This document shows positions 55,274-62,448 of a stretch of DNA of 64,000 bases, in pieces. Each line of letters begins with the position of its first letter. Within the stretch, counting starts at the first letter, position 1. The position numbers were made by a program, and so were the translations under genes. Source of the DNA: Pseudoclavibacter sp. RFBB5 (GTDB lineage: Bacteria > Actinomycetota > Actinomycetes > Actinomycetales > Microbacteriaceae); contig NZ_PSTZ01000007.1 of assembly GCF_002931555.1 (NCBI RefSeq), forward strand, positions 62,001 to 126,000, read 5' to 3'. Under the pieces are notes generated by a model. That model was not told the origin of the DNA. It ran no database searches and saw only the letters and a program-made list of their open reading frames with translations.

Positions 55274-55300
55274 AGTGTAGTACTTTCTGAACATGTTCAG
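55274..55300. promoter_or_regulatory. Shared operator: perfect 14-bp palindrome between TIGR01777 and TetR genes
   Basis: CTGAACATGTTCAG (55287-55300) is a perfect palindrome that covers the TetR start codon. Reverse -10 TACACT (complement of 55274-55279) is 7 bases before ATG 55266; forward -10 TACTTT (55281-55286) is 6 bases before ATG 55293. The palindrome thus lies at the forward transcription start and about -20 to -35 of the reverse promoter, suitable for autorepression and repression of both genes. Confidence 0.65.
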
Positions 55301-56033
55301 TTTTGAATCCGGTGGCAGCGCCGACTCGGGCGGTTCCGTCGACAAGGCACCCCGAGAAGAGCGAGGACCAGCGGTGCCGTCCACCAAGAGAGAGCGCACC
55401 CGGGCGCTCATCCGCGACGTCGCCCTCCGCTCCTTCCGCGAGCGCGGCTACGACGCGACGACGATCCGTCGCATCGCAGAAGAGGCCGGGGTGTCAGTCG
55501 GCACCACCAACTACCACTTCGCGACCAAGAACCACCTCGTGCAGGAGCTGTACCTGGACGTGCAGGAATCGCACGCAGACGCCGCGATCCCGCAGCTGGA
55601 GGGCGTCCGCGAGCTCACCGAGCGCCTCGCCATCGTCTACCGCACCGGCCTGGAGCAGCTCGAGCCCTACCACCCGCACGCGCCGGAGTTCCTCGCTGCC
55701 GCAGTGTCGCCGAGGTCGCCCATCAACCCGCTCTCCGAGGAGTCCGCGCCCGCGCTCGCGGTGATCCGCGGCCTCTTCGAGCGCGCCGTCGACGACGCGA
55801 AGTCCCCGCTGCCCGACGAGTTCAAGACCGGCCTCCCGCAGGTTCTGGTGCTGAGCCACCTGCTGCTGGCGCTCCTCTGGGTCTACGACTCATCGCCGGG
55901 GCGGGAGCGCACGCACCGCATCCTCGACCGCGCCCTCAACCTGCTGCGCATGACGCTGCCGCTCACGCGCATCCCCGTCGTTCGGGCGCCGCTGCGGGAG
56001 CTGCTCGCGCTCGCTGGGGAGGTGCGCGCCTGA
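55293..56033 (+). CDS. TetR-family transcriptional regulator
   Basis: A 246-residue regulator. An unusual Gly/Ser-rich 30-residue N-terminal extension precedes the helix-turn-helix (TRALIRDVALRSFRERGYDATTIRRIAEEAGVSVGTTNYHFATKNHLVQELY). The ligand domain is helical with no identified ligand. The ATG 55293 is 6 bases from a -10 element and within a perfect palindrome, probably its own operator. The stop overlaps the start of a DUF4166 gene (TGATG). Confidence 0.9.
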   Translation: MFSFESGGSADSGGSVDKAPREERGPAVPSTKRERTRALIRDVALRSFRERGYDATTIRRIAEEAGVSVGTTNYHFATKNHLVQELYLDVQESHADAAIPQLEGVRELTERLAIVYRTGLEQLEPYHPHAPEFLAAAVSPRSPINPLSEESAPALAVIRGLFERAVDDAKSPLPDEFKTGLPQVLVLSHLLLALLWVYDSSPGRERTHRILDRALNLLRMTLPLTRIPVVRAPLRELLALAGEVRA

Positions 56034-56749
56034 TGGCGCGCTCCGTGTTCGGACCCGGAGCGGCCTCGTGCGGACGCAACGCGGTCGACGAGCGCTGCAC
56101 CCAGCCGCTGCAGTCGGTCTACGAGCAGGCCCTCGGGTCGCAGATCGAACTCCTCCACCCGCAGCTCCGCCGCTACTTCGGCCTCATACCCGCCGGGCAC
56201 GAGGGCCGGGGTCGTGGGGTCTACTCGTGGGCGGGCCCCCGCCACACGGTGCTGCGGCCGGTGTTCGCCTGGCTCGCCTGGCGGCACGTCCTGTTCCCGG
56301 AGCGCGGGCGCAGCGTTCCCTTCACGATCCGCAACCGACCGGAGGACGATGGTGCCCTCTCCGCCAGGCGTGAGTTCGCGTTCCCGCTCGTCACGCGCGT
56401 CATGGAGGACACGATGAGGGCCATCCCAGTGCCGGGCGGGAGGCCGCGGCTCGTCGACCGGCTCGGTCGCCGACGCGGCCTCGAGGTCGAGCTCGAGGTC
56501 CGAGTGCACGAGGGCGGTGTGCGGATGCGCTCGACGCGCCTGTGGCTCCGGATGCGGGTCCCGGGCGCAGTCGCGGTCCTTCGCGTGCCACTGCCTCGCG
56601 TCGTCACCATGACGCTCGACGAGCGGGCGCATCCTGACGGCGACGGTCGCCAATGCGTTGACGTGCGCCTGCGGTCGCCGATCATCGGCGACGTGTTCCG
56701 CTACGTCGGCGAATTCGCGTACGACGTCGTGACCGTCAGCGAGCCCTGA
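56033..56749 (+). CDS. DUF4166 domain protein
   Basis: A 238-residue protein. QPLQSVYEQALGSQIELLHPQLRRYFG at the start and FPLVTRVMEDTMRAIPVPGG, RLVDRLGRRRGLEVELEVRV in the middle match the DUF4166 pattern; the family has no known biochemical function and often lies beside SDR/TIGR01777-like genes. The ATG overlaps the TetR stop. Thus the TetR probably controls both this gene and the divergent epimerase-like gene, which may act together. Confidence 0.8.
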   Translation: MARSVFGPGAASCGRNAVDERCTQPLQSVYEQALGSQIELLHPQLRRYFGLIPAGHEGRGRGVYSWAGPRHTVLRPVFAWLAWRHVLFPERGRSVPFTIRNRPEDDGALSARREFAFPLVTRVMEDTMRAIPVPGGRPRLVDRLGRRRGLEVELEVRVHEGGVRMRSTRLWLRMRVPGAVAVLRVPLPRVVTMTLDERAHPDGDGRQCVDVRLRSPIIGDVFRYVGEFAYDVVTVSEP

Positions 56750-56831: not shown

Positions 56832-58154
56832 ATGCAGACGAGCACCGAGATTCCAGAGGTCGCCACCGGCGGCAAGGTCAGGCGGACGATCGCGATCCTC
56901 GGCGCGGGTGGCGACCTGACGGAGCGCCTCCTGCTGCCGGGGATCGCGAGGGTCGCCGACGCGAGCCCGGACGTCGAGCTGCACATCATCGGCGCCGCCC
57001 GCACCCCGCAGTCGCGCGACGAGTGGCGTGACGTCGTCCGGCAGAGCCTCGAGGGCATAGGCGTCTCGGAGGACACGATCGACGCGCTCGTGTCCCGCTC
57101 GGACTTCGTGCCGACCGACGCGTCCTCCGCCGACGAGCTGCGGGAGCTGCTCGAAGCGTGCCCGAGCTCGCCGCTGCTCTACGTCGCGCTGCCGCCGGTC
57201 ATGGGCGAGAAGGTCGCGGCGGCGCTCGCCGAACTGGATCTCCCCGACGACCTCAGGATCGCGATCGAGAAGCCGTTCGGCGAGAGTGAGGAAAGCGCGC
57301 GGGCGCTCAACGAGGCGCTCGCCGCCGTCGTGCCGGAGGACCGCCTGTGGCGCATCGATCACTTCCTCGGGACCCCGGCGGCGGTGGAGCTCATCCGGTC
57401 GCGGGACCGCATCGAGGCGAGCGGCGTGCCGGTTGCCGACGCTGGGTCGAAGACGGAGGACACGGAGGACACTCGGGACGCGGAGTCACCCGGCCGCGTC
57501 GAGATCATCTTCGAGGAAGGCCTCGGCATCGAGGGGCGAGGCGCCTTCTACGACGAGACCGGCGCGCTGCGGGACATGCTGCAGAGCCACCTCATGCTCA
57601 TGCTCGCGCTGACGGCCATGGAGCAGCCGGACGGGGAGCCCGGTGGGCTCGACGACGCCCTCGCGGAGGTCCTGCGGGCCGTGCGCCTGTGGGACGAGCA
57701 TCCAGTGTCCGCCCGCCGCGCCCGCTACGCGGCCGGGGAGGTCGACGGGAAGCCGCTCGGGGCGTACGTCGACGAGGACGACGTGGATGCCGACCGCGGG
57801 ACGGAGACGCTCGCCGAGATCACACTGCAGGTCGACACCCCCAGGTGGCGCGGCGTGCCGTTCGTGCTGCGCTCCGCGAAGGCCATCGGTGAGGCGCGGC
57901 AGGAGATCGTCCTGACCCCTGGCGACGGGTCGGCGCCCACGCGCATCCCGCTCCGCGCCCCTGCGGGCGACAGCAGCGCCGATCCGTACGCGCGCGTCAT
58001 CGCGGGCCTGCTGACCGGGAACACGCTGCTCTCGGTGCGCGGCGACGTCGCCGAGGAGCTGTGGCGCATCGTGACGCCCGTGCTCGAAGCGTGGGAAGGC
58101 GACGCAAGAGAGCTGCCGGAGTACGCGGCCGGCACCGTCGGCGCTGACGCCTGA
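56832..58154 (+). CDS. Glucose-6-phosphate dehydrogenase-like protein
   Basis: A 440-residue protein related to G6PD. The NADP motif is GAGGDLTERLL instead of GASGDLTxRK, EKPFG is intact, and the substrate site RIDHFLGTP has lost the Lys of the canonical RIDHYLGKE. It is also 50-70 residues shorter than typical G6PD. The Asp/Glu-rich insertion (TEDTEDTRDAESP, residues about 207-220) is unusual. It may act on another sugar, be weakly active or be regulatory. No tkt, tal, pgl or opcA gene is adjacent, so it is not the usual pentose-phosphate operon copy. GGAGG precedes the ATG. Confidence 0.82.
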   Translation: MQTSTEIPEVATGGKVRRTIAILGAGGDLTERLLLPGIARVADASPDVELHIIGAARTPQSRDEWRDVVRQSLEGIGVSEDTIDALVSRSDFVPTDASSADELRELLEACPSSPLLYVALPPVMGEKVAAALAELDLPDDLRIAIEKPFGESEESARALNEALAAVVPEDRLWRIDHFLGTPAAVELIRSRDRIEASGVPVADAGSKTEDTEDTRDAESPGRVEIIFEEGLGIEGRGAFYDETGALRDMLQSHLMLMLALTAMEQPDGEPGGLDDALAEVLRAVRLWDEHPVSARRARYAAGEVDGKPLGAYVDEDDVDADRGTETLAEITLQVDTPRWRGVPFVLRSAKAIGEARQEIVLTPGDGSAPTRIPLRAPAGDSSADPYARVIAGLLTGNTLLSVRGDVAEELWRIVTPVLEAWEGDARELPEYAAGTVGADA

Positions 58155-59035: not shown

Positions 59036-59388
59036 GGATGCTCCTAGGAGGTGGGCGGGTGGAATGAGGATTCTCACCGCGCGGTGATCTCGGGAACGAG
59101 GGTGCTCGTCCCACGACCCAGGGCTCGCCTGGGGGATCGTTCCCCCTGAATCGACTCTGAAGTGTACGACAAAACCCACCGGTCGGTCGCTCGGGGCGGT
59201 TCCCGGCCCCGTGTCGCTTCGCTCGGGGTCGACACCGATGCCGACGCCGGGAGCATGTCGAAACTGCATCGGGTCATGCCGAATCTGAAGCGCCAGTGTC
59301 GGCGGACGGCCATAGCCTCGAAGAAGGACTCAGTACCGCACGAGGCTCGTCGCCGCACGAGGCTCCAACGCACGACGAAAGGCACGCA
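59036..59388. other. 353-base divergent intergenic region
   Basis: Between the aquaporin and aldehyde dehydrogenase genes. It holds the palindrome TCACCGCGCGGTGA (59074-59087), the hairpin GGGGGA-TCGT-TCCCCC (59131-59146), and TACACT on the reverse strand (complement of 59161-59166), a plausible aquaporin -10. TAGCCT near 59312 may be a -10 for the dehydrogenase. No open frame looks coding. Confidence 0.6.
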
Positions 59389-60969
59389 ATGACGCTGGCA
59401 CCACATTCGCTCATCGCCGGAAGCAGCGAGCTCGGGGGAGGCGACGAGCTCATCGCCCGTCGCGCCGCAGACGGGGCGGTGCTCGCGCCGGCCTTCCGCA
59501 GCAACACCGCGGAGGAGCTCGAGCTGGCCGTGCAGGCCGCGCACGACGCGTTCGACGTCTACCGCGCGACGTCACCGGCCGACCGGGCGGCGTTCCTGGA
59601 GCGCATCGCGACGGAGATCGAGGCCGACAAGGACGAGATCATCGCCCGAGCGCACGAGGAGACCGGGCTTCCCGTCGCGCGCCTCACCGGTGAGGTCGGC
59701 CGCACCACGGGCCAGCTCCGGTTGTTCGCGAAGGTCGTCGCCGAAGGCGGCTGGCAGGGCGCCCGCATCGACGAGGCACTGCCGGATCGGACCCCGCTGC
59801 CCCGCGCCGACATCCGCCAGCGGAAGATCCCCCTCGGCCCCGTCGCCGTCTTCGGAGCGAGCAACTTCCCGCTGGCCTTCTCGACCGCAGGTGGAGACAC
59901 GGCGTCGGCGCTCGCCTCCGGGAGCCCCGTCATCGTGAAGGCGCACAGCGGCCACCTCGGCACCGCATCGCTCGTCGGCCACGCCATCGCCCGCGCCGTC
60001 GAGGCATCCGGGCTGCCCAGCGGCGTGTTCTCGCAACTGTTCGGGTCTGGCCGGGTGATCGGGCAGGGCCTCGTCGCCGACCCGCGCATCAAGGCGGTGG
60101 GCTTCACCGGCTCGCGCTCGGGTGGGCTCGCGCTCGTGCGCATCGCCCAGCAGCGGGCCGAGCCCATTCCCGTGTACGCCGAGATGAGCAGCGTCAACCC
60201 GGTCTTCGTGCTCCCGGCCGCCCTCGCGGCCGACCCCGAGAAGGTCGCGGCCGACTACGTCGGCTCCCTCACGCTCGGCTCCGGACAGTTCTGCACGAAC
60301 CCCGGCATCGTGCTCGTGCCGGGCGGCGACGCGGGTGACACGTTCCTGCGCGAAGTCGGCGAGCGCATCGCCCAGGCGAACGGGCAGACGATGCTCACGC
60401 ACGGCATCGGCGACGCCTACCGGGAAGGCGTCGCGGAACGCGAGGCGTCCGGGGCGACGGTCGTCGCGAGGGGGCAGGGCGACTCGACCCTGAACGCACC
60501 GGCTCCCATCGTCTTCAGTGAAGCCGTCGAGGCGTTCGGCGAGGCGCTCGAGGGCGAGATCTTCGGTGCTGCCGGGCTCGTGCTGCGCTACGACGACGCC
60601 GACCAGCTCCGCGAGTTCGCCGAGCAGCTCGAAGGCCAGCTCACCGCGACGGTCCTCGCGACCGACGACGACACCGACGCGGCCCGCGCGCTCCTGCCGG
60701 TGCTCGAGCGCAAGGTCGGGCGCATCCTGTTCAACGGCTGGCCGACGGGTGTCGAGGTCGGGTACTCGATGGTGCACGGCGGGCCGTACCCGGCGACGTC
60801 GGATACGCGCTCCACGTCGGTCGGGGCGCTCGCCATCGAACGGTTCCTGCGCCCCGTCGCCTACCAGGACGTGCCGGACGCGCTGCTGCCCGAGGCGCTG
60901 CGCGACGCGAACGAGTGGGGCGTGCCGCGCCTCGTCGAGGGACGCATCCAGCTGCCGAGCGGGTACTGA
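59389..60969 (+). CDS. Aldehyde dehydrogenase (NADP-dependent, ketoglutarate-semialdehyde type)
   Basis: A 526-residue dehydrogenase, longer than the standard 480-495. Catalytic Cys in SGQFCTNPG, catalytic Glu in VYAEMSSVNPV, and cofactor loop FGASNFPLAFSTAGGDTASALASGSPV match the 2,5-dioxovalerate (alpha-ketoglutarate semialdehyde) dehydrogenase group. Such enzymes end pentose, aldarate or hydroxyproline catabolism. No partner sugar gene is next to it, so the substrate is uncertain. AAAGG precedes ATG 59389. Two strong hairpins follow the stop. Confidence 0.9.
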   Translation: MTLAPHSLIAGSSELGGGDELIARRAADGAVLAPAFRSNTAEELELAVQAAHDAFDVYRATSPADRAAFLERIATEIEADKDEIIARAHEETGLPVARLTGEVGRTTGQLRLFAKVVAEGGWQGARIDEALPDRTPLPRADIRQRKIPLGPVAVFGASNFPLAFSTAGGDTASALASGSPVIVKAHSGHLGTASLVGHAIARAVEASGLPSGVFSQLFGSGRVIGQGLVADPRIKAVGFTGSRSGGLALVRIAQQRAEPIPVYAEMSSVNPVFVLPAALAADPEKVAADYVGSLTLGSGQFCTNPGIVLVPGGDAGDTFLREVGERIAQANGQTMLTHGIGDAYREGVAEREASGATVVARGQGDSTLNAPAPIVFSEAVEAFGEALEGEIFGAAGLVLRYDDADQLREFAEQLEGQLTATVLATDDDTDAARALLPVLERKVGRILFNGWPTGVEVGYSMVHGGPYPATSDTRSTSVGALAIERFLRPVAYQDVPDALLPEALRDANEWGVPRLVEGRIQLPSGY

Positions 60970-60978
60970 GCCCCAGCT

Positions 60979-61008
60979 CCCAACGAAGTGCTGATGCGCT
61001 TCGTTGGG
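60979..61008 (+). terminator. Terminator of the aldehyde dehydrogenase gene
   Basis: CCCAACGAAG (60979-60988) and CTTCGTTGGG (60999-61008) form a perfect 10-bp stem with a 10-base loop, starting 10 bases after the stop codon. Confidence 0.75.
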
Positions 61009-61065
61009 CGTGAACCCCGAGGCACGAACCCCGAGGCGCCGGTCGCAGCGCGTCGAACGCGGAAG

Positions 61066-61091
61066 GAGCTCACCCGGTCGGGTGAGCTCCC
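61066..61091. terminator. Second hairpin in the converging gap
   Basis: GGAGCTCACCC (61066-61076) and GGGTGAGCTCC (61081-61091) form a perfect 11-bp stem with the tetraloop GGTC. It lies 52 bases beyond the 2-hydroxyacid dehydrogenase stop and can terminate it, and back up the other terminator. Confidence 0.75.
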
Positions 61092-61143
61092 TCCGTGCGG
61101 CGTCCGAGCGAGGCCTGCTCGGCGCGACCCGCTTGCCGCGCTG

Positions 61144-62172
61144 CTAGAGCTTGACCGGGGTGACGAGCGTGCCGTTCGCGAGCCACGACCTGAGGTTGTC
61201 GACGACCAGCTGCCGCATGTCGTCGCGAGTCTCCCGCGTGCCGCTGCCGAGGTGGGGGAGCAGCACGACGTTCTCGAGACCGATGAGCGCCTCGGGGACG
61301 TTCGGCTCGTCCGCGAACACGTCGAGACCCGCGCCCCGGATCGTGCCAGCCTGCAGTGCCGCGACGAGCGCATCCTCGTCGACGACGGAGCCGCGGGAGA
61401 TGTTCACGAGGACGCCGTCCGGCCCCAGCGCCTCGAGGACCTCGGCCGAGATGAGCTTCTGCGAGTCAGCGCCCCCAGCGGTTGCCACGACCAGCGCGTC
61501 ACTGCTCCGTGCGAGCTCCACAAGCGAGTCGACGTACCGGAAGGGGGAGCCGGGGACTTCACGCCGATTGTGGTAGCTGATGGGGCAGTCGAAGCCCGAG
61601 AGGCGCTTGGCGATCGCGCTTCCGATGCGCCCGAGCCCGACGATGCCGACGCGGGTGCCGGTGAATCTCGTCGTGAGCGGGAAGTTGCCGGACCTCGCCC
61701 ACGAGCCGGCCCGCACGTAGCGGTCGGAGGCGCTGATGCCGCGGTAGACGTCGAGGAGCAGGGACAGGGCGGTGTCGGCGACGCAGTCGTTGAGCACGTC
61801 AGGGGTGTTGCTGAGGGCGATGCCCCGATCACGAGCTGCGCTCGTGTCGGTGGTGTCGTATCCGACGCCGAAGTTCACGATCGCCTCGAGCGAGGGGAGC
61901 CGCTCCATGAGTGCGCGTGAGACCCCGAACCGGCCGCCCGTCACGACGACGCGCACGTCGGCGAGTTCCGCCTCCTGCTCGGCGGTGAGCTCGCTCGCGA
62001 CGGCGGAGATGATCGGCGCATCGAACTCGGCGATGAGCTCCCGCTCGAGCTGCGGCATAAGGGGACCGACGCGCAGCACGGTGGGGGTCGCGGTGGTCGC
62101 CGCTGGGGTGGCGGTGGCCGCGGCAGTGCTGGCGGGGGCGGCGTCTGGCGTCGTTGCGAGAGGGGATTCCAT
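61144..62172 (-). CDS. D-2-hydroxyacid dehydrogenase
   Basis: A 342-residue NAD-dependent dehydrogenase. NAD motif GLGRIGSAIAKRL; catalytic Arg in NISRGSVVDE, Glu in ADEPNVP, and His in LLPHLGSGTRE are all present. The N-terminal 30 residues are Ala/Thr-rich (ASTAAATATPAATTATPT), encoded by GCGGTGGTCGCC-like repeats, and are atypical. It may reduce glyoxylate, hydroxypyruvate or another 2-oxoacid. Start ATG 62172 is 6 bases after TACGAT, with TTGGAC as a -35. It diverges from an ABC substrate-binding protein gene. Confidence 0.9.
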   Translation of the reverse strand: MESPLATTPDAAPASTAAATATPAATTATPTVLRVGPLMPQLERELIAEFDAPIISAVASELTAEQEAELADVRVVVTGGRFGVSRALMERLPSLEAIVNFGVGYDTTDTSAARDRGIALSNTPDVLNDCVADTALSLLLDVYRGISASDRYVRAGSWARSGNFPLTTRFTGTRVGIVGLGRIGSAIAKRLSGFDCPISYHNRREVPGSPFRYVDSLVELARSSDALVVATAGGADSQKLISAEVLEALGPDGVLVNISRGSVVDEDALVAALQAGTIRGAGLDVFADEPNVPEALIGLENVVLLPHLGSGTRETRDDMRQLVVDNLRSWLANGTLVTPVKL

Positions 62173-62178
62173 GTCTGG

Positions 62179-62209
62179 ATCGTAGGTCGCAGGACCGATG
62201 CTGGTCCAA
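62179..62209 (-). promoter_or_regulatory. Leaderless promoter of the 2-hydroxyacid dehydrogenase gene
   Basis: Reverse strand: TTGGAC (complement of 62204-62209), a 19-base spacer, TACGAT (complement of 62179-62184), then 6 bases to ATG 62172. Confidence 0.5.
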
Positions 62210-62448
62210 GATGCACTTTGCATTGATTGATCCACTCGGCGCATGGATGCGAGTCTTGCCAGTAATCACTAGGGCACGCGGGTCGCTAGGGTTGACTCCG
62301 GCCCCGCGCCTCCCGCCGTCCCCCGCGGCTCCCTCGCCCAGTCGTGTTGACGCAGTCGAATCGACGCGCCCAAGCTGAAGGCGTCTCAACGAGGAGAACC
62401 ACTGACTCAGGGCTCGGCCCTCGAGTTCACAACACCGGAGGAACAACG

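What the first reader, a model, noticed from the sequence alone, without database searches (positions are those of the whole stretch)
56832..58154. G6PD-like protein lacking the substrate-binding lysine
RIDHFLGTP replaces RIDHYLGKE, the NADP loop is altered, the protein is short, and an acidic insertion (TEDTEDTRD) follows the site. It is away from pentose-phosphate genes. It may be a paralogue with a new substrate or a regulatory role.
Basis: partly seen in the sequence, partly recalled or inferred. Interest (0 to 1): 0.5.

Follow-up and report, generated by a model that had tools for sequence, protein, structure and literature searches.

The report
Eroded, diverged second G6PD-like gene
Some Pseudoclavibacter bacteria keep, beside their normal glucose-6-phosphate dehydrogenase, a faster-evolving cousin that has lost a phosphate-gripping residue and two pieces of its scaffold yet keeps its catalytic residues, so it is probably still an enzyme, perhaps with a different sugar substrate.

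Summary
The observation mostly holds. Window 56832-58154 encodes a 440-aa G6PD-superfamily protein with RIDHFLGTP for RIDHYLGKE, and the genome has a separate canonical zwf followed by opcA. Two details fail: the NADP loop fits the family pattern and keeps the 2'-phosphate Arg, and the acidic stretch is a species-variable loop, not a conserved insertion. Loss of the Lys is not unique: in 74 aligned paralogue rows that position is Lys in 14, Arg in 19, and the adjacent Tyr is Phe in all 74. Special to Pseudoclavibacter (5 of 10 genomes searched) is further erosion: the RFxN segment is gone and about 37 C-terminal residues are deleted. The catalytic residues are invariant and dN/dS is 0.15-0.28, like upstream neighbours, so the gene is maintained. 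Best reading: a neofunctionalised NADP-dependent aldose dehydrogenase, substrate unknown (0.5); a non-catalytic protein or weak G6PD isozyme remain open. In 3 of 5 species it adjoins a glucarate-degradation-like block, which suggests a uronate or other sugar substrate, but one species keeps the gene without any of the three marker genes searched. No assay was possible.

The parts
56832..58154 (+). G6PD-like paralogue (called zwf-C here), 440 aa, ATG start directly after GGAGGTCAC
56886..57008 (+). Start of the Rossmann domain: GAGGDLT loop and AART with Arg57, equivalent to the NADP 2'-phosphate Arg
   Evidence: role of the Arg from PMC4807051 passages
57261..57281 (+). AIEKPFG with Lys147, equivalent to the EKPxG Lys
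57351..57377 (+). RIDHFLGTP: Asp176 and His177 kept, Tyr->Phe178, Lys->Thr181
57405..57494 (+). Species-variable loop (acidic in this copy) where other members have the RFxN segment
57516..57590 (+). Glu229 to RDMLQSH: Asp248 and general-base His253 kept
57864..57899 (+). VLRSAKAIGEAR with conserved Lys350 and Arg356
57915..57986 (+). Stretch in which about 37 residues of the C-terminal sheet are missing relative to the Herbiconiux relatives
56033..56749 (+). Context: DUF4166 protein, 82 bases upstream, same strand; same place in 5 of 5 species
55293..56033 (+). Context: TetR-family regulator overlapping the DUF4166 gene; same place in 5 of 5 species
59296..60969 (+). Context: aldehyde dehydrogenase (NADP+ type, nearest PDB 1eyy, 3v4c), first gene of a glucarate-degradation-like block, shared with 2 of 4 other species
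61144..62244 (-). Context: D-2-hydroxyacid dehydrogenase of the same block

Best explanation
It is a maintained, neofunctionalised paralogue of the G6PD superfamily, not a decayed zwf. Shown: it descends from an actinobacterial paralogue lineage (zwf-B here, whose tested members pass NCBIfam NF009492) through a narrower Microbacteriaceae clade (zwf-C) in which the Lys is Asn, and in Pseudoclavibacter Thr, with further loss of the RFxN segment and about 37 C-terminal residues. Inferred: it binds NADP+ in the Rossmann domain (Arg57), uses Asp176-His253 and Lys147 to take a proton from C1-OH and pass hydride from C1 of an aldose to NADP+, and, with the phosphate cradle weakened (Tyr->Phe, Lys->Thr) and the substrate side cut back, prefers a substrate other than glucose 6-phosphate.
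For: A separate canonical zwf frees this copy to diverge. Asp and His of the motif, the general-base His, the Asp of RDxxQxH, the EKP Lys, the RSGK Lys and the Glu are kept in 83 of 83 rows, the NADP Arg in 20 of 20 zwf-C rows (five near-duplicate pairs among the rows). dN/dS is 0.15-0.28 in ten species pairs, like the upstream SDR, TetR and DUF4166 genes (0.12-0.32). The Pseudoclavibacter rows form one clade with a long stem (100/100, 0.56). The model superposes on solved G6PDs, best on 8i37 (Z 26.6, 365 residues, 3.6 A), itself a short 428-residue enzyme; the H. pylori enzyme is active (PMC9323780 passages), so a short C-terminal domain does not rule out catalysis. Beside it in 3 of 5 species is a glucarate-degradation-like block, i.e. 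sugar-acid oxidation genes.
Against: No activity was measured. The cited human work calls Lys205 essential for catalysis (title only), which favours an inactive protein. RFxN is kept in 75 of 76 other rows, so its loss may harm fold or oligomer. Downstream genes are under tighter constraint (AqpZ 0.08-0.18, aldehyde dehydrogenase 0.06, hydroxyacid dehydrogenase 0.12) and canonical zwf far tighter (0-0.024). The model is poor in the C-terminal half (mean pLDDT 66.5). P. helvolus keeps the gene with no match to the three block genes searched, and outside the genus no neighbour is common to all zwf-C stretches laid out. A shared fold shows no function.
Confidence: 0.5

Rival explanations
1. A catalytically dead or nearly dead protein (pseudoenzyme) that acts as a binding partner, NADP(H) sensor or regulator.
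For: Lys lost, with human Lys205 called essential for catalysis in a cited title. RFxN and about 37 residues lost in this genus only among the rows aligned. dN/dS about ten times or more that of canonical zwf.
Against: All catalytic residues tested are invariant in the 5 species; a dead enzyme would be expected to lose some. Upstream neighbours evolve at a like rate. Related paralogues vary freely at the Lys.
Confidence: 0.27
2. A G6PD isozyme with weak or altered kinetics, used under particular conditions, as in other bacteria with several zwf genes.
For: Nearly half of actinobacterial species have several zwf genes (PMC8546961, section 10 read). Lys or Arg is kept at the site in 33 of 54 zwf-B rows, and 8 of 8 zwf-B proteins scored pass the NF009492 'glucose-6-phosphate dehydrogenase' cut-off. 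His177, Lys350 and Arg356 could still hold a phosphate (kept; the role of the last two is recalled).
Against: Both Tyr and Lys of the phosphate site are changed in 20 of 20 zwf-C rows. The protein is below both equivalog cut-offs (NF009492 418.8 of 428, TIGR00871 255.6 of 400.6).
Confidence: 0.2
3. A decaying pseudogene, or a sequencing or assembly artefact.
For: Two losses in conserved regions; only 5 of 10 genomes of the genus carry it.
Against: Open frame, conserved core and the same two losses in five genomes; dN/dS well under 1.
Confidence: 0.03

Closest known systems
NCBIfam NF009492 (PRK12853) 'glucose-6-phosphate dehydrogenase'
   Same: Best family match (418.8 bits, E 3.1e-125). Eight of 8 zwf-B proteins (549-682 bits) and 3 of 3 full-length zwf-C proteins (525-538) pass it. 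Tyr->Phe and a variable Lys are shared.
   Different: This protein (418.8) and its P. terrae orthologue (424.4) fall below the cut-off of 428; RFxN segment and about 37 residues are missing.
Canonical Zwf (TIGR00871), e.g. the zwf of the same genome
   Same: Same two Pfam domains, fold and catalytic residues.
   Different: 28% identity; RIDHYLGKE changed; 255.6 bits against 639.6 for the own zwf, cut-off 400.6; none of six neighbours scanned is opcA, which follows the own zwf.
Short G6PD of Helicobacter pylori (PDB 8i37, 428 residues)
   Same: Top structure match of both models (Z 26.6 and 30.4); short.
   Different: H. pylori G6PD keeps RIDHYLGKE (PMC9323780 passage); 22% identity over superposed residues.
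Mycobacterium avium G6PD, PDB 4lgv
   Same: Second-best PDB sequence match (1.3e-46); also Phe in place of Tyr (RVDHFLGK).
   Different: Keeps the Lys; 490 residues.

Membership tests
G6PD superfamily (Pfam PF00479 + PF02781) | Both domain models above gathering score | tested here: met
   101 bits against 22.1 and 158.7 against 27
Canonical G6PD, TIGR00871 equivalog | Score at or above 400.6 bits | tested here: not met
   255.6 bits
Canonical G6PD, TIGR00871 equivalog | Substrate motif RIDHYLGKE | tested here: not met
   RIDHFLGTP
Canonical G6PD, TIGR00871 equivalog | Catalytic Asp-His dyad and EKPxG Lys | tested here: met
   Kept in 83 of 83 aligned rows including this one
Canonical G6PD, TIGR00871 equivalog | Oxidation of glucose 6-phosphate with NAD(P)+ | not testable with these tools
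   Needs an assay
NF009492 (PRK12853) equivalog | Score at or above 428 bits | tested here: not met
   418.8 bits; P. terrae orthologue 424.4
NF009492 (PRK12853) equivalog | Descent from within that lineage | tested here: met
   zwf-C is nested among zwf-B rows, and 8 of 8 zwf-B and 3 of 3 full-length zwf-C proteins scored pass the model; the tree tool warned of long branches meeting and rooted at the midpoint
NADP-preferring G6PD | Arg in the beta2-alpha2 loop (E. coli R50) | tested here: met
   Arg57; kept in 20 of 20 zwf-C rows against 24 of 54 zwf-B rows; role from PMC4807051 passages

The most novel reading that the evidence does not exclude
A G6PD-fold enzyme that has abandoned glucose 6-phosphate: with the C6-phosphate cradle lost and the substrate wall cut away, it oxidises C1 of another aldose with NADP+. 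The sharpest version: a uronate 1-dehydrogenase, taking a sugar with a C6 carboxylate to the lactone and feeding the glucarate-degradation-like block beside it in three species. I know of no uronate dehydrogenase of this fold (recalled; one paper search, listed none, 10 of 19 papers shown).
Probability: 0.3. Interest if true: 0.6.

Novelty: new variant of a known kind. Interest (0 to 1): 0.32.

Why it matters
G6PD is a very conserved enzyme, and the NCBI family models name these relatives 'glucose-6-phosphate dehydrogenase'. Here an actinobacterial paralogue lineage varies freely at the textbook substrate lysine, and one genus has deleted conserved scaffold while keeping the catalytic residues. 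If the substrate differs, annotations and flux models that count such genes as extra zwf copies, or infer cofactor preference of G6PD isozymes from them, are wrong for these organisms. It also offers a natural test of what the lysine and the C-terminal sheet are for.

Tried and rejected
Lysine loss as a unique feature: rejected, it varies across the lineage. Altered NADP loop: rejected. Conserved acidic insertion: rejected.

Downstream block. The aldehyde dehydrogenase, hydroxyacid dehydrogenase and solute-binding protein genes also lie beside the gene in AY1H1, the deepest branch, where no aquaporin gene lies between; in own and AY1H1 the block runs on to two GudD-like genes and a KdgD-like gene. 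Genus matches: GudD-like 3 of 10 genomes at 1e-50, KdgD 4 of 10 at 1e-40 (three at 94% or more, AY1F1 40%), aldehyde dehydrogenase 4 of 10 at 1e-100 (three at 90% or more). AY1F1 instead has a KdgD-like/aldehyde dehydrogenase pair about 8 kb from the gene, and P. helvolus has an NADH:flavin-oxidoreductase-like gene there (the latter name is recalled from sequence) and no match for the three. So the link is suggestive, not required. I left the odds of the main readings unchanged: the shared context and the helvolus case pull opposite ways.

Trehalose link: a GH15 gene lies in 12 of 26 zwf-B stretches and OtsA in 6 of 26, but in 0 of 14 zwf-C stretches, so it bears on zwf-B only; the 40 stretches are a chosen subset of the matches. 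Sugar importer neighbours of some zwf-C genes (L042, L043, L047, L052) and a rhamnosidase gene (L051) are not shared by the rest.

Structure: both models are weak in the C-terminal half; no active-site geometry was read from them. The Foldseek-based list is a second look, not a full search. Promoter and terminator scan: one promoter-like match inside the DUF4166 gene, no terminator. Papers: ten searches, of which 38, 42, 65 and 81 showed only part of their lists, showed none on this protein or on NF009492 by name.

Full report
What is there. Window 56832-58154 (+) is a 440-codon ORF with both G6PD domains (PF00479 101 bits, PF02781 158.7 bits). Its best NCBIfam match is NF009492 (PRK12853) at 418.8 bits, cut-off 428; TIGR00871 (zwf) gives 255.6, cut-off 400.6. 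The genome has two G6PD_N matches. The other is a canonical zwf about 307 kb away with RIDHYLGKE, 639.6 bits to TIGR00871, followed by opcA. The nearest named relatives are Pseudoclavibacter terrae (90%), P. helvolus (77%), Pseudoclavibacter sp. AY1F1 (75%) and AY1H1 (73%), then two Herbiconiux (51%).

How common. In 199 Microbacteriaceae genomes 190 have some match at E <= 1e-20; 14 of the 199, own genome included, have one at or below 1e-90, the zwf-C tier. In the genus 5 of 10 genomes carry the 440-aa type; four have only a canonical-type match and one has a zwf-B type besides its canonical one. In a class-wide draw of 394 genomes, with about 4 candidates scored in each of those listed, 18 passed 1e-60 and only the own genome was in the zwf-C tier.

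Residues. I aligned 83 rows (9 canonical, 54 zwf-B, 13 zwf-C of other genera, 7 Pseudoclavibacter rows from 5 genomes; five near-duplicate pairs remain). At the substrate Lys: canonical K 9/9; zwf-B K 14, R 19, M 7, N 4, L 4, T 3, H 1, Q 1, V 1; zwf-C of other genera N 13/13; Pseudoclavibacter T 7/7. The Tyr is Phe in 74 of 74 non-canonical rows. Asp and His of the motif, the general-base His, the Asp of RDxxQxH, the EKP Lys, the RSGK Lys and the Glu are kept in 83 of 83. The NADP Arg is kept in 20 of 20 zwf-C rows and 24 of 54 zwf-B rows. The Arg's role, and its lack of conservation in actinobacterial G6PDs, are from PMC4807051 (passages); the roles of human His201, Tyr202, Lys205 and the His263-Asp200 dyad from PMC11448927 (passages).

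What is peculiar to Pseudoclavibacter. RFxN after the site is absent in 7 of 7 rows; of the other 76 rows only L058 fails the pattern, with RFAG in place of RFxN. The spacing from the RSGK Lys to the LSVR-type mark is 48-49 residues in 7 of 7; in the other 76 rows the marks were found in 70, of which 69 give 84-93 and one (L074) gives 240, a slip of the pattern; the median is 86. The loop in place of RFxN differs between species in length and charge. AlphaFold2 models from 7 sequences (mean pLDDT 66.5 and 65.1) show three strands at 365-399 in the Herbiconiux protein where the window protein has one short strand. Both superpose best on the H. pylori G6PD 8i37 (Z 26.6, 365 residues, 3.6 A; Z 30.4, 400 residues, 3.1 A).

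Is it maintained. dN/dS is 0.15-0.28 over ten species pairs, against 0-0.024 for canonical zwf in the same pairs. Upstream SDR, TetR and DUF4166 genes give 0.12-0.32; downstream AqpZ 0.08-0.18, aldehyde dehydrogenase 0.06 and hydroxyacid dehydrogenase 0.12, these in one or two pairs only, leaving out a 42%-identity aldehyde dehydrogenase pairing with AY1F1 that is not an orthologue. So selection is purifying, at the level of the upstream accessory genes. The tree puts zwf-C (100/100, stem 0.66) inside zwf-B and the Pseudoclavibacter rows in one clade (100/100, stem 0.56); the tool warned that long branches meet. Eight of 8 zwf-B proteins scored pass NF009492.

Context. The order SDR(-), TetR, DUF4166, G6PD-like is the same in 5 of 5 Pseudoclavibacter loci. 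The start lies 82 bases after the DUF4166 gene, behind GGAGGTCAC. On the other side, own, P. terrae and AY1H1 share an aldehyde dehydrogenase (nearest PDB 1eyy and 3v4c), a hydroxyacid dehydrogenase and a family 5 solute-binding protein; in own and AY1H1 the block runs on to a second hydroxyacid dehydrogenase, two GudD-like genes (TIGR03247 265 and 720 bits, cut-off 828.7) and a KdgD-like gene (NF002958 400 bits, cut-off 278). This looks like the D-glucarate to 2-oxoglutarate route (inference). In AY1H1 the aldehyde dehydrogenase follows directly on the same strand; in own and P. terrae an aquaporin gene on the other strand lies between. The GudD-like gene is in 3 of 10 genus genomes, each of which has the G6PD-like gene, but 2 of the 5 carriers lack it.

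Reading. Shown: a paralogue, a variable Lys across the lineage, extra erosion in one genus, kept catalytic and cofactor residues, purifying selection. Inferred: NADP-linked aldose 1-dehydrogenase with a changed substrate (0.5), against a non-catalytic protein (0.27) and a weak G6PD isozyme (0.2). If human Lys205 is essential for catalysis, as the title seen says, the loss argues for low activity as much as for a new substrate, so confidence stays moderate. Paralogous zwf genes in Actinobacteria are known (PMC8546961, section 10) and ordinary; the erosion with kept catalysis, and the possible uronate link, are what deserve an assay.

Noticed in passing
L054, L055, L057, L059, L060, L063, L064, L065, L072, L075, L077, L079: zwf-B paralogues lie within a stretch that holds a GH15 trehalase-like gene in 12 of 26 cases and OtsA in 6 of 26; suggests a trehalose or glucose link for that lineage.
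   Followed up: partly
window 59296-62244 and on through L040:12345-19598 and L121:240-5180: Glucarate-degradation-like block: aldehyde dehydrogenase, two hydroxyacid dehydrogenases, ABC transporter genes, two GudD-like genes, KdgD-like gene, LysR-like regulator (the LysR name is recalled from sequence). In 3 of 10 genus genomes by its GudD-like gene.
   Followed up: partly
L124:11386-13967 (AY1F1): A different aldehyde dehydrogenase/KdgD-like pair (44% and 40% to the own block) about 8 kb from the G6PD-like gene; the region next to the gene seems to swap sugar-acid modules.
   Followed up: no
   Followed up: no
L045:10560-11411, L050:7053-8009: A polyphosphate kinase 2 gene near the zwf-C gene and on its strand in two genomes.
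   Followed up: no
window 56033-56749: The DUF4166 gene has the highest dN/dS of the seven genes compared (0.26-0.32, leaving out a non-orthologous aldehyde dehydrogenase pair).
   Followed up: no
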